Positions 37,669 through 41,410 of a stretch of DNA of 64,000 nt are shown here, piece by piece. The DNA is taken from positions 992,001 to 1,056,000 of the forward strand of contig NZ_CP014754.1 of the NCBI RefSeq assembly GCF_001447155.2, given 5' to 3'. Origin of the DNA: Marinobacter sp. LQ44 (lineage in GTDB: Bacteria; Pseudomonadota; Gammaproteobacteria; Pseudomonadales; Oleiphilaceae). A model generated the notes under the pieces. That model was given only the letters and a program-made list of their open reading frames with translations, was not told the DNA's origin and did no database searches. Numbering within the stretch: the first letter of the stretch is position 1; each line of letters begins with the position of its first letter. The translations under genes and the position numbers were made by a program.

Positions 37669-37783
37669 GGTCAGTCAGGGGGTAGGGCTTCCAAAAACCG
37701 CTCCTTCGGCACATCCATGTGGCGCTTCTGCTCCGCCATCCATGGCTCCGCACATTTTTGGAAGCCCTACCCCCTGACTGACC
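37669..37783. repeat. Hairpin/cloverleaf element, copy A
   Basis: 115 bp with perfect 29-bp inverted arms, starting GGTCAGTCAGGGGGTAGGGC and going on to CTTCCAAAAA. Between the arms are two small palindromes, CACATCCATGTG and GCCATCCATGGC. The same plan occurs at 38690 and 41315. It lies between convergent genes (zapG and the NIF3-family gene). Confidence 0.88.
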
Positions 37784-37873
37784 AACCTGACTCCACCGAG
37801 ACCTCCCACGACCCACGAAATCAGATAGCCTCGGAACATTTGTGAGGGTTTCCGACGAGAACCAACCAATACT

Positions 37874-38617
37874 CTATACCGGGTTATCACAATCGACGAA
37901 CTGGTGCCTCACACCAAATTCTCTGGCCAACGCCTCTCCCAACGCCTGGACGCCATAGCGTTCAGTTGCATGGTGACCAGCCGCGTAGTAGTGGATTCCG
38001 CATTCCCTGGCTGTATGCGTCGTGGGCTCGGAAATTTCACCGCTGATATAAGCATCAACACCCGCATTCAAGGCTATGTTGATGAACCCCTGGGCAGCAC
38101 CAGTGCACCAGGCTACGGTTTCGATTTTTTCGGGGCCATTACCAACATGAAGTGGCTGCCGGTGAAGGGCTCTGGCGATGTGGAGACCAAACGTTTCCGG
38201 AGTCATTGGCTCGGAAAGCTCACCCTGCCAAACCAGTCCGCCGATCGGCGCGGGGTTCTGGATATTCAGGACATTGGCGAGTTGGCGGTTATTGCCGTAT
38301 TCAGGGTGGTCATCGAGCGGCAGGTGGTATGCCACCAGATTGATCTCGTTATCCAGCAACTGTTTGATGCGGTTCTTTTTCATGCCGCGGATGGTCTGGT
38401 CCTCGCCTTTCCAGAAGTAGCCGTGGTGGGCCAGAATCATATCGGCGTTATGTTTCACCGCTTCGTCGATCAACGCCTGCGATGCGGTTACCCCGGACAC
38501 GACAACGCGTACGTTCTCGCTACCCTCTACTTGCAGACCGTTCGGGGCGTAGTCCTGAAAACCTTCCGGCTGAAGCCATTCGTTGATTTTGGCGAGGATC
38601 TCGTTTCGGTTTGCCAT
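37874..38617 (-). CDS. NIF3/YbgI-family (DUF34) metal-binding protein
   Basis: 247 residues. Family metal-site motifs are visible: DMILAHHGYFW (two His), YHLPLDDHPEYGNN (His, Asp), and the C-terminal YYAAGHHATERYGVQAL (His and Glu). These proteins form toroidal hexamers with two metal ions per subunit. Some are annotated as GTP cyclohydrolase I type 2, but the role is unsettled. The next gene upstream on the strand is separated by element B. Confidence 0.9.
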   Translation of the reverse strand: MANRNEILAKINEWLQPEGFQDYAPNGLQVEGSENVRVVVSGVTASQALIDEAVKHNADMILAHHGYFWKGEDQTIRGMKKNRIKQLLDNEINLVAYHLPLDDHPEYGNNRQLANVLNIQNPAPIGGLVWQGELSEPMTPETFGLHIARALHRQPLHVGNGPEKIETVAWCTGAAQGFINIALNAGVDAYISGEISEPTTHTARECGIHYYAAGHHATERYGVQALGEALAREFGVRHQFVDCDNPV

Positions 38618-38689
38618 GTTTGTGCTTGCCTCCCCATCGTGCGGTGCTTCTGAGGTCGGATCGGCGCACTCAGTTCATGGGGAAGCAAT

Positions 38690-38789
38690 GTGCAGGATGG
38701 CCTTTCCAAAAACCGCTACGAGCACATCCATGTGCGCTTCTCTCAGGCCATCCTTGGCCTTCGAAATTTTTGGAAAGGCCATCCTGCAC
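38690..38789. repeat. Hairpin/cloverleaf element, copy B
   Basis: 100 bp. Perfect 23-bp arms: GTGCAGGATGGCCTTTCC then AAAAA, matched by TTTTTGGAAAGGCCATCC then TGCAC. The interior holds GCACATCCATGTGC and AGGCCATCCTTGGCCT. The 78-bp core (CCTTTCC to GGAAAGG) is identical, in inverse orientation, to that of copy C. It is located between the NIF3-family gene and hisC, both on the minus strand. Confidence 0.93.
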
Positions 38790-38841
38790 CTTGCAGCCGA
38801 ACTTTATGCGCGCCGATTCCTCGTTCGAGTGTTGCGCCAGC

Positions 38842-39903
38842 TTAAAGAAAAGCCAGGCCTTTGATCAAAGAACTGTTTTGGTCTCTGGTGCCAATGGTAA
38901 TTCGCAGGAAGTCGCTAATCCGCGGCTTATTGAAGTGACGAACGATAATGCCCTGCTCTCTCAGCTTGGCGGCAATATCGGCACCTTCGTGGCTCGGGTG
39001 CCGGGCAAAGACAAAGTTTGCTTTTGAGGGCAGAACTTCAAAGCCAAGGCGCTCCAGTTCAGAGGTTACGCGTTCACGCTCGTCAATCACACCACCACAA
39101 CATTTCTCAAACCACTCTAGGTCCTCAAATGCGGCGATCGCGCCAACCAGAGCAAGGCGATCGAGCGGATATGAGTTGAAGCTGTCTTTTACCCGATTCA
39201 ACGCTTCGATCAATTCCTCATTACCCACGGCAAAGCCTACCCGAAGACCAGCAAGAGACCGGGCCTTGGACAGAGTCTGGCTGACTAACAGGTTCGGATA
39301 GCGGTTGACCAGTGAAATAGCCGTTTCACCACCGAAGTCTACATAGGCTTCATCCACCACCACTACGCTATCCGGGTTGGCTTGCAGGATGTCTTCCACA
39401 TGCTCCAGCCCCAAATAACGGCCAGTCGGAGCATTTGGGTTCGGGAAGATGATGCCGCCGTTGGGGCGTTTGTAATCGTCCGGGTTGATTTCGAAGCTTT
39501 CCGTCAACGGGATGACGTCGCTTTCGATCTGATACAGACCGCAGTACACCGGGTAGAAGCTGTAGGTGATATCCGGAAACAGGATGGGCTTATCGTGTTT
39601 AAGCAGGCCCTGAAAGATGTGCGCCAGAACCTCATCGGAACCGTTACCCACGAACACCTGCTTGGCGGAAATACCGTGATCCGCGTGATAGGCAGCAATC
39701 GCTTCTTTCAACGCCTGCCCTTCCGGGTCCGGGTACAAGCGAAGGTCGTCATTCAGCTCAGACTGAATGGCTGCAATCACCTTCGGGGATGGACCGAAGG
39801 GATTTTCGTTGGTGTTCAGCTTTACCAGGTTGGCCATTTTCGGCTGTTCACCCGGCACATACGGCTGCAATTCGCTGACCAGCGCGCTCCAGAACTTACT
39901 CAT
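38842..39903 (-). CDS. hisC: Histidinol-phosphate aminotransferase
   Basis: 353 residues, a normal HisC length. Class I/II PLP aminotransferase: NTNENPFGPSPKV near the start, FPNPNAPTG, DEAYVDFGG, the PLP lysine in SQTLSKARSLAGLRVGFA, and a C-terminal FLRITIGTRDQN. It moves an amino group from glutamate to imidazole-acetol phosphate in histidine synthesis. It overlaps hisD by eight bases, implying coupled translation in murA-hisG-hisD-hisC order. Confidence 0.96.
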   Translation of the reverse strand: MSKFWSALVSELQPYVPGEQPKMANLVKLNTNENPFGPSPKVIAAIQSELNDDLRLYPDPEGQALKEAIAAYHADHGISAKQVFVGNGSDEVLAHIFQGLLKHDKPILFPDITYSFYPVYCGLYQIESDVIPLTESFEINPDDYKRPNGGIIFPNPNAPTGRYLGLEHVEDILQANPDSVVVVDEAYVDFGGETAISLVNRYPNLLVSQTLSKARSLAGLRVGFAVGNEELIEALNRVKDSFNSYPLDRLALVGAIAAFEDLEWFEKCCGGVIDERERVTSELERLGFEVLPSKANFVFARHPSHEGADIAAKLREQGIIVRHFNKPRISDFLRITIGTRDQNSSLIKGLAFL

Positions 39904-41200
39904 TGATACGGTACTCCGCTGAACGGGCGTGAGCCGTCAGTCCTTCACCGCGCGCCAGCACAGAGGCTACGCGACCCATCCGGTCGGCACCCTCGGGGCT
40001 GAAGCCGATCAGGGAGGAGCGTTTCTGGAAATCGTAAACGCCTAGCGGCGAGCTGAACCTTGCCGTACCGCTGGTAGGCAGTACGTGGTTCGGGCCGGCG
40101 CAGTAGTCACCGAGAGCTTCGGCGGTGTAACGGCCCATAAAAATAGCACCGGCGTGGCGAATGTCGTCCAACATCGCCTGTGGGTCTTCCACCGACAGCT
40201 CCAGGTGCTCAGGAGCAATCCGGTTGGAAACTTCCGCCGCTTCTTTCAAATCGGCCACGTGAATCAGCGCACCACGGCCGATCATGGACGTGCGGATAAT
40301 CTCCTCCCGTTCCATGGTCGGCAGCAGCTTGTTAATGCTGGCTTCCACCGCATCCAGAAAAGCCGCATCCGGACTGATCAGAATACTCTGGGCCTGCTCG
40401 TCGTGCTCAGCCTGGGAAAACAGATCCATGGCAATCCAGTCCGGATCGGTCTTGCCATCGCAGATCACCAGGATCTCCGACGGGCCGGCAATCATATCGA
40501 TACCCACAACCCCGAACACTTCCCGCTTGGCCGTGGCCACAAAAATATTCCCCGGGCCCACAATCTTGTCCACTGCCGGCACAGTCTCGGTACCGTAGGC
40601 CAGCGCCGCCACAGCTTGCGCACCGCCAAGCGTGAACACCCGATCAACCCCGGCAATCGCGGCAGCCGCAAGCACCATGTCGTTCACCACACCATCCGGC
40701 GTCGGCACCACCATGATCAACTCACCGACACCCGCCACCTTCGCGGGAATGGCATTCATCAGAACCGAAGACGGATACGCCGCCTTACCACCGGGCACGT
40801 ACAAACCCGCCCGATCCAGCGGCGTCACCTTCTGCCCAAGAAGCGTTCCGTCGTCGTCTTCGTACTGCCACGACTGCTGATTCTGCCGCTCATGATAATC
40901 CCGAACCCGCTCAGCCGCTTTCTCCAAAGCCACCCGCTGATCCTGAGGAATCCGCTCCAATGCTTCCTGAAGCCGGCTCTTGTCCATCTCCAGCTCCGCC
41001 ATGGAGCCGACCTTCAACCGGTCAAACTGCTCGGTAAACTCCAGAACCGCCGCATCGCCACGGGTTTTCACCTCACGCAGAATATGCCGAACCGACTCAT
41101 TCACCTGATGGTCAACACTGTCATCCCACGCCAACAGTTTGGCCAGCGCACCGTCAAAGTCGCTCTGGGTTGTCGTCAGTCTGGTGATTCTGTCGTTCAT
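39896..41200 (-). CDS. hisD: Histidinol dehydrogenase
   Basis: 434 residues. Signature region DMIAGPSEILVICDGKTDPD, zinc ligands in SQAEHDEQAQSILI, NHVLPTSGTARFSSPLGVYD and the C-terminal GLTAHARSAEYRI. It oxidises histidinol to histidine in two NAD-dependent steps. Together with hisC downstream and hisG upstream it forms the split his cluster seen beside murA in many gammaproteobacteria. Confidence 0.97.
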   Translation of the reverse strand: MNDRITRLTTTQSDFDGALAKLLAWDDSVDHQVNESVRHILREVKTRGDAAVLEFTEQFDRLKVGSMAELEMDKSRLQEALERIPQDQRVALEKAAERVRDYHERQNQQSWQYEDDDGTLLGQKVTPLDRAGLYVPGGKAAYPSSVLMNAIPAKVAGVGELIMVVPTPDGVVNDMVLAAAAIAGVDRVFTLGGAQAVAALAYGTETVPAVDKIVGPGNIFVATAKREVFGVVGIDMIAGPSEILVICDGKTDPDWIAMDLFSQAEHDEQAQSILISPDAAFLDAVEASINKLLPTMEREEIIRTSMIGRGALIHVADLKEAAEVSNRIAPEHLELSVEDPQAMLDDIRHAGAIFMGRYTAEALGDYCAGPNHVLPTSGTARFSSPLGVYDFQKRSSLIGFSPEGADRMGRVASVLARGEGLTAHARSAEYRINE

Positions 41201-41314
41201 CTCGTTAATCCTGCGTTGGATTGAAAACTTACAACCGCTGGATTACCCGCCAGCGAATCGGGGAATGTTCAACAAAGCTCAGGGGCTTCCAAATTCAAAA
41301 GTACACGAAAGCCA

Positions 41315-41410
41315 TCGGGTAGGCCTTTCCAAAAATTTCGAAGGCCAAGGATGGCCTGAGAGAAGCGCACATGGATGTGCTCGTAGCGGTTTTTGGAAAG
41401 GCCTACCCGA
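41315..41410. repeat. Hairpin/cloverleaf element, copy C
   Basis: 96 bp. Perfect 21-bp arms TCGGGTAGGCCTTTCC plus AAAAA. The 78-bp core is the exact reverse complement of the core in copy B, but the outermost arm bases differ from those of B and are again self-complementary. Found between hisD and hisG in an otherwise empty spacer. Confidence 0.93.

What the first reader, a model, noticed from the sequence alone, without database searches (positions are those of the whole stretch)
37669..41410. Unrecognised hairpin/cloverleaf element in three copies around the his genes
Three intergenic elements (37669-37783, 38690-38789, 41315-41410) share one plan: perfect outer arms of 29, 23 and 21 bp containing TTCCAAAAA, and two small inner palindromes (CACATCCATGTG type and GCCATCC.TGGC type). 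Together they can fold as a cloverleaf. Copies B and C share an identical 78-bp core in opposite orientation; copy A has diverged but keeps each stem. No nearby gene explains them. They may be a small non-autonomous mobile element or a structured regulatory or terminator module.
Basis: seen in the sequence. Interest (0 to 1): 0.75.

Follow-up and report, generated by a model that had tools for sequence, protein, structure and literature searches.

The report
Dispersed two-loop RNA repeat, CsrA-type
The three hairpins are copies of a repeat found about a hundred times in this Marinobacter chromosome, related to a poorly understood RNA family, and its sequence changes suggest that it works as RNA read from one strand, most likely by catching the global regulator protein CsrA.

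Summary
In detail: perfect outer arms of 30, 23 and 21 bp; B and C share 82 identical bp in opposite orientation. The element is not unrecognised: A and B align through both loops with Rfam TwoAYGGAY (RF01731), below its cut-off. The genome holds 105 scored copies; 122 of 124 genomes of the genus matched. In the 75 copies I delimited, a 52-60 nt core with two A-N-GGA hairpins 23-25 nt apart sits on nearly perfect arms (20-31 bp in 74), whose outer part is private to each copy.

A strand test points to the GGA strand as the functional RNA: in 180 elements with distinct arms, arm mismatches are G-U 108 times and A-C 6 times on that strand (19:2 after strict thinning), in both orientations to the his genes. 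CsrA is encoded once, close to a solved homologue. Best reading: a dispersed CsrA-binding RNA module; CsrA binding was proposed for the family in 2014 and I found no test of it.

Close species show core replacement (B into C), inversion and deletion. Pairs within 1 kb are all head-to-head (13 of 13). Y1 transposase counts do not follow copy number. How copies spread, and why antisense copies are constrained alike, is unexplained.

The parts
37668..37784 (-). Element A, downstream of the nif3-like gene (sense to it), convergent with the 37158-37595 gene; arms 37668-37697 and 37755-37784
37735..37746 (-). A, first GGA hairpin (GCC AUGGAU GGC on the minus strand)
37710..37721 (-). A, second GGA hairpin (CAC AUGGAU GUG on the minus strand)
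38685..38794 (-). Element B, between hisC and the nif3-like gene, sense to both; perfect arms 38690-38712 / 38767-38789, 28 bp with one mismatch overall
38746..38759 (-). B, first GGA hairpin (GGCC AAGGAU GGCC)
38722..38735 (-). B, second GGA hairpin (GCAC AUGGAU GUGC)
41310..41415 (+). Element C, between hisG and hisD, GGA strand antisense to the his genes; perfect arms 41315-41335 / 41390-41410; core identical to B
41343..41356 (+). C, first GGA hairpin (GGCC AAGGAU GGCC)
41367..41380 (+). C, second GGA hairpin (GCAC AUGGAU GUGC)

Best explanation
Each element is one copy of a dispersed RNA repeat related to Rfam TwoAYGGAY, read from the strand that carries GGA in the two loops. SHOWN HERE: a private, almost perfect stem presents two small hairpins with A-N-GGA loops 23-25 nt apart; mismatches in the stem are of the kind that RNA of that strand tolerates; about 105 copies lie in this genome; between close species cores are replaced, and elements are inverted and deleted in place. 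INFERRED: the two loops are bound by the two faces of one CsrA dimer, so that transcripts holding copies act as a distributed CsrA trap or become CsrA-responsive, while the long stem holds the loops exposed and protects the RNA from exonucleases. How new copies are made is not known.
For: Both loops and the outer stem align with RF01731. RF01731 gives 53 matches in the genome at E<=10 (150 of 218 candidates scored), one over the cut-off; none of 14 control genomes is over it. 105 copies at E<=3e-10 (150 of 1884 candidates scored) with a covariance model built from 46 of them. Covariation in those 46: 500 cells with both sides changed against 139.7 in shuffles; 98.2% of 1789 cells paired against 35-47% when the partner is slid. 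Strand test: G-U 108, A-C 6, other mismatches 44 in 180 elements with distinct arms; 19:2 with one element per arm cluster, 50:6 with one event per cluster and position; 44:2 for copies sense and 36:2 for copies antisense to the his genes. All 75 catalogued own copies hold two A-N-GGA loops 23-25 nt apart; in the genus set 176 of 180 do, and none of 180 holds two on the opposite strand. CsrA bridges sites 10-63 nt apart, best above 18 (PMC7652899, passages). One csrA gene, its product identical to a solved CsrA (1y00) at 51 of 57 aligned residues. Gardner et al. matched the family's two hairpins to the CsrA-binding motif (PMC4333381, passage).
Against: No binding or expression data. Only 5 of 75 copies hold the exact SELEX site RUACARGGAUGU. 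Orientation to host transcription is not fixed: site B has 15 plus and 18 minus elements, site C 31 minus and 6 plus, and copies antisense to the his genes show the same G-U bias, which a read-through mRNA model does not explain. No promoter excess upstream of the GGA strand. A and B stay below the Rfam cut-off (35.3 and 34.3 against 43) and C is not listed. The minimum-energy fold of A does not show the two hairpins. Two of 124 genomes of the genus showed none at the threshold used and nine showed 2-5, so the element is not essential. Copies entered A1 only if they had long arms, so the pairing figure is partly built in; but 69 of the 74 places found by sequence or by RF01731 had such arms.
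Confidence: 0.6

Rival explanations
1. A cis-acting 3'-end and processing module: the long stem blocks 3'-5' exonucleases or is cut by RNase III, and the stretch after it on the GGA strand, rich in C and A and poor in G and U, helps Rho end transcription. CsrA would be incidental.
For: The same intergenic sites are occupied across the genus: A in 23 of 80, B in 32 of 78, C in 35 of 72 loci. The 3' flank is skewed to C and A (C-G 0.26, A-T 0.30 in the first 20 nt); the upstream flank shows an A-T skew of 0.16 in the first 20 nt only and no C excess. Long stable stems. Among 67 of 75 own copies free of ORF overlap, the upstream gene reads into the GGA strand in 45 (crude gene caller).
Against: It does not explain why both loops keep A-N-GGA. 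Orientation differs between species at B, and C is antisense in 31 of 37 elements, where operon transcripts would carry the strand that tolerates A-C mismatches.
Confidence: 0.22
2. A selfish REP- or MITE-like DNA repeat whose palindrome matters only for movement, with no RNA role.
For: 105 dispersed copies; copy numbers that differ widely between species; head-to-head pairs, 13 of 13 within 1 kb here and 8 of 8 within 400 bp in named loci, a layout that also predominates among REPs (PMC3733652, passages); mostly outside ORFs (67 of 75); clustered in one part of the chromosome (27 of 105 in 1.00-1.25 Mb).
Against: Strand-specific G-U excess is not expected for double-stranded DNA. Y1 transposase genes do not follow copy number in the nine genomes of the genus searched for both (element matches, both strands counted / Y1 genes: 124/1, 66/0, 103/2, 136/2, 8/22, 90/0, 36/1, 114/2, 80/0); other transposases were not searched. 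No match to 80 bases of B in held plasmids or phages. No clear ancestral empty site among the 11 sites displayed. A folded single-stranded DNA of the GGA strand as intermediate could still produce strand bias.
Confidence: 0.15
3. Rho-independent transcription terminators.
For: Strong hairpins between genes; A lies between convergent genes. One weak terminator-like site overlaps the end of the left arm of C (41308-41327).
Against: Three terminator-like sites in the region against 4.2 in shuffles (that scan allows loops of 3-8 only, so it cannot judge the long stem). More than 50 nt between the arms, and no T tract after them on either strand.
Confidence: 0.03

Closest known systems
TwoAYGGAY RNA, RF01731 (Weinberg 2010, PMC2864571; CsrA hypothesis, Gardner 2014, PMC4333381; passages read)
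   Same: Two hairpins with AYGGAY loops on a closing outer stem; gammaproteobacteria among its hosts; covariation supports a longer helix than first annotated (PMC7657543, passage).
   Different: Window copies score below the Rfam cut-off. Here it is a repeat of about 105 copies in one genome with private arms, head-to-head pairs, core replacement and inversion; none of this is in the passages I read.
CsrB/RsmZ-type CsrA-sequestering small RNAs
   Same: GGA in hairpin loops; sites spaced for one CsrA dimer.
   Different: Two sites per element at many loci, instead of many sites in a few dedicated RNAs (recalled, and described in the passages of PMC5864184); no promoter signal found.
REP repeats, GTAG and CGTC families (PMC3733652, passages)
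   Same: Dispersed, mainly intergenic palindromes, often head-to-head pairs.
   Different: 96-117 nt in copies with full arms instead of 20-40; arm sequence private to each copy; no link to Y1 transposase counts.

Membership tests
TwoAYGGAY (RF01731) | Two hairpins with AYGGAY terminal loops closed by an outer stem, on one strand | tested here: met
   cmscan alignments of A and B pair both loops with the model; loops A-N-GGA in 75 of 75 own copies, with C, T or A after GGA
TwoAYGGAY (RF01731) | Covariance score at or above the gathering cut-off of 43 bits | tested here: not met
   A 35.3, B 34.3, C not listed. One of 53 matches in the genome scores 43.4; its core differs from that of B at one base. 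So the window copies are homologues of a copy that passes, not passing members themselves
CsrA-binding RNA | A-N-GGA in hairpin loops, two sites 10-63 nt apart | tested here: met
   spacing rule read in PMC7652899
CsrA-binding RNA | Binding by CsrA | not testable with these tools
   needs gel shift or CLIP
REP/RAYT system | Copy number tied to a Y1/RAYT transposase | tested here: not met
   nine genomes of the genus common
MITE | Constant terminal inverted repeats, target-site duplication, partner transposase | tested here: inconclusive
   Outer arms differ between copies; a possible 5-bp direct repeat at own 1162k is equally explained by deletion; transposases other than Y1 not searched
Rho-independent terminator | Stem followed by a T tract | tested here: not met
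   no T tract after the arms on either strand; scan finds no excess of terminator-like sites

The most novel reading that the evidence does not exclude
A CsrA trap that has become a repeat family: over a hundred two-site RNA modules dispersed through the chromosome, each with its own stem, kept as RNA of one strand even where that strand is antisense to the host operon, and kept alike by core replacement between copies. Either the copies have their own or antisense transcription, or the folded GGA-strand molecule is itself the intermediate by which the repeat copies itself.
Probability: 0.3. Interest if true: 0.75.

Novelty: new variant of a known kind. Interest (0 to 1): 0.58.

Why it matters
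An RNA family described in 2010 and proposed in 2014 to bind CsrA turns out, in this genus, to be a high-copy chromosomal repeat with strand-specific evidence of RNA function. If it binds CsrA, this global regulator is titrated from about a hundred places at once instead of by a few dedicated small RNAs. It also gives a natural system for studying how near-perfect stems of unrelated sequence arise around one conserved core, and the G-U against A-C count is a simple test of which strand of a palindromic repeat is read as RNA.

Tried and rejected
DNA-only palindrome. In the first 46 copies G-U pairs were so rare that I took the palindrome for a DNA property. The larger set showed few mismatches of any kind, with G-U far ahead of A-C, so I dropped that idea.

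Inverted duplication of the target at insertion. At own 1162k the outermost bases of one arm occur at the bare site of the species called g75, but a deletion between 5-bp direct repeats explains it as well. I could not show an ancestral empty site; at 1075k and 1155k the missing copies look like deletions.

RAYT mobilisation: copy numbers do not match. Own promoter: no excess of sigma-70-like sites upstream of the GGA strand (6 of 75 against 3 of 75 on the other side, p 0.5). Conserved ends beyond the arms: only weak. Plasmid or phage carriage: no match with an 80-base query.

Counting cautions. The counts include weaker antisense matches of the same copies; in the list each place appears once. 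score at most 31 and 10 candidates per genome. From 74 places, five were dropped (four interrupted or short-arm copies, one unrelated palindrome); six were added, one of them the dropped short-arm copy, giving 75. Of 209 core matches, 14 were dropped (arms under 10 bp or cut by an end). My first script showed the element in 22 of 29 class-level loci; it looked in the wrong place in loci cut by contig ends, and one search shows it in the other 7. Sense and antisense assume the window's gene order in all loci; I did not check it locus by locus, though one search shows the his genes collinear in eight relatives. Gene orientations come from a crude codon-usage caller. Of 24 aligned sites, five (inverted, or lost in one species and not comparable) were left out; two of its 'arms different' rows come from one own copy with deleted arms, and arm identities near 0.6 are probably close to chance for G-rich arms.
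Full report
WHAT IS THERE. Three intergenic elements lie at 37668-37784 (A), 38685-38794 (B) and 41310-41415 (C). Their perfect arms are 30, 23 and 21 bp, and all three fold far better than shuffles on both strands. Genes around them: a short gene at 37158-37595 (+), a nif3-like gene at 37874-38617 (-), hisC 38842-39903 (-), hisD 39896-41200 (-), hisG 41443-42120 (-) (the names are my reading of the translations). With the GGA-loop strand as reference, A and B are sense to the his-nif3 genes and C is antisense between hisG and hisD. 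B and C are identical over 82 bp.

A KNOWN TYPE OF RNA, BELOW THE CUT-OFF. A and B match Rfam RF01731, TwoAYGGAY, at 35.3 and 34.3 bits (cut-off 43, E 0.006 and 0.011); the alignments place both GGA loops and the outer stem correctly. C was not listed. In the whole genome 53 matches were found at E<=10, one above the cut-off; none of 14 control genomes had one above it. The family was described in 2010 (PMC2864571, passages) and its hairpins were matched to the CsrA-binding motif in 2014 (PMC4333381, passage). A search for the family name found 7 papers, 5 listed; I read passages of these five, and none of the passages mentions a dispersed repeat or a binding test. Further searches combining Marinobacter or CsrA with repeat, palindrome or RNA-structure terms listed nothing that describes it; of those lists I saw titles and abstract starts, plus passages of PMC3733652, PMC4679880, PMC5864184 and PMC10516948, and PMC12306157 holds none of the five terms I asked for.

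COPY NUMBER AND SPREAD. A covariance model from 46 of 69 copies with arms of 20 bp or more finds 105 copies in the 4.44 Mb genome (150 of 1884 candidates scored, so a lower bound), 49 plus and 56 minus, with 27 in the 250 kb from 1.00 Mb. In the genus 122 of 124 genomes match; in a spread of the class 67 of 369 genomes, own included, and 60 of 272 genera. All 29 non-own loci fetched from that spread show the same plan: a core of about 51-54 nt with two GGA hairpins between arms of 23-43 bp of unrelated sequence (22, 7). The 26-nt core end AGCGTACAGGGATGTATTCACAGCGT is present letter for letter in two of them (L121, L125) and in five own copies.

ANATOMY. In 75 delimited own copies the core is 52-60 nt (mostly 53-57), the arms are at least 20 bp in 74 and perfect in 39; both loops read A-N-GGA in 75 of 75, 23-25 nt apart. 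The inner ten arm bases resemble TTTCCAAAAM; the outer part is private. Between copies, identity of the outer arm is 0.33-0.47 whether the cores are 52% or 99% identical, yet within a copy the arms pair almost perfectly (99.1% of cells). Weak conserved sequence lies outside the arms, and the 3' side of the GGA strand is rich in A and C while the 5' side is not.

WHICH STRAND IS READ. In a double-stranded palindrome a single transition gives a G-T pair on one strand and an A-C pair on the other, so a DNA-only constraint predicts equal numbers on the GGA strand. I scanned 80 named loci of Marinobacter and relatives plus three syntenic stretches with a model of the core alone, which does not see the arms. 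In 180 elements with distinct arms G-U occurs 108 times and A-C 6 times; with one element per arm cluster 19:2, with one event per cluster and position 50:6. Clusters were made by single linkage and the largest holds 121 elements, so the strict count is conservative. The bias is the same for copies sense (44:2) and antisense (36:2) to the his genes. This is the strongest evidence that the GGA strand is a functional RNA. It is also a puzzle, since antisense copies would need a transcript of their own.

HOW COPIES CHANGE IN PLACE. I compared 184 kb of this genome with two close species (93% and 89% identical in the hisC region); the first is very probably M. shengliensis, as its contig length equals that of L163. 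Twenty-four element sites line up. Of 50 pairwise comparisons at 19 of these sites, 25 keep arms and core, 14 keep the core with changed arms, 1 keeps the arms with a different core, 10 differ in both. The instructive case is C: M. shengliensis has nearly the same arms at this site (identity 0.88 and 1.00) but a different core, while the core of C in this genome is identical to that of B, 2.6 kb away. The simplest reading is that the core of B was copied into C. Elements are also inverted in place (1138k; a two-element block at 1061k) and deleted (1075k, 1155k). Across the named loci, site B is occupied in 32 of 78 (15 plus and 18 minus elements), site A in 23 of 80 (22 of 23 in one orientation), site C in 35 of 72 (31 minus, 6 plus). 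Close pairs are always head-to-head: 13 of 13 within 1 kb in this genome, 8 of 8 within 400 bp in the named loci.

WHAT IT MOST LIKELY DOES. Two A-N-GGA hairpins at 23-25 nt fit one CsrA dimer, which bridges sites 10-63 nt apart and best above 18 (PMC7652899, passages). The genome has one csrA gene whose product is identical to a solved CsrA at 51 of 57 aligned residues. I therefore favour a dispersed CsrA-binding module. The loops, the stem and the strand bias are shown; CsrA binding, the trapping role and transcription of each copy are inferred. A 3'-end or processing role of the stem is the main rival and could coexist.

WHAT DOES NOT FIT. Only 5 of 75 copies carry the exact SELEX site. A folds best with its two hairpins paired to each other. 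Orientation relative to genes is only mildly biased (45 of 67 with the upstream gene reading into the GGA strand) and differs between species. No promoter signal, no link to Y1 transposases, no clear insertion event.

VERDICT. A real, widespread repeat with the marks of selection as RNA, related to a catalogued family. The family and the CsrA idea are known; the repeat behaviour, the private arms, the strand test and the core replacement are what this analysis adds.

Noticed in passing
own genome about 674451-674606, 1357382-1357519 and 1651507-1651664; seed matches in L184, L189 and L206: A longer variant with an extra segment of about 80 nt, holding short inverted repeats, at the same point of the second GGA hairpin. 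The three own copies have different arms and two core types, so the segment seems to have moved between copies.
   Followed up: partly
window 28709-30703, minus strand: Two group II intron matches above the Rfam cut-off (RF00029 at 28709-28780 and RF02001 at 30534-30703).
   Followed up: no
L162 (own genome 681349-681504, minus): The only csrA match of the genome; product close to solved CsrA proteins.
   Followed up: yes
own genome 986048-986374: The single Y1-type transposase match of the genome, about 6 kb before the window.
   Followed up: no
element A, 37710-37746: The two GGA hairpins of A can pair with each other instead of folding separately; a possible switch between two folds.
   Followed up: no
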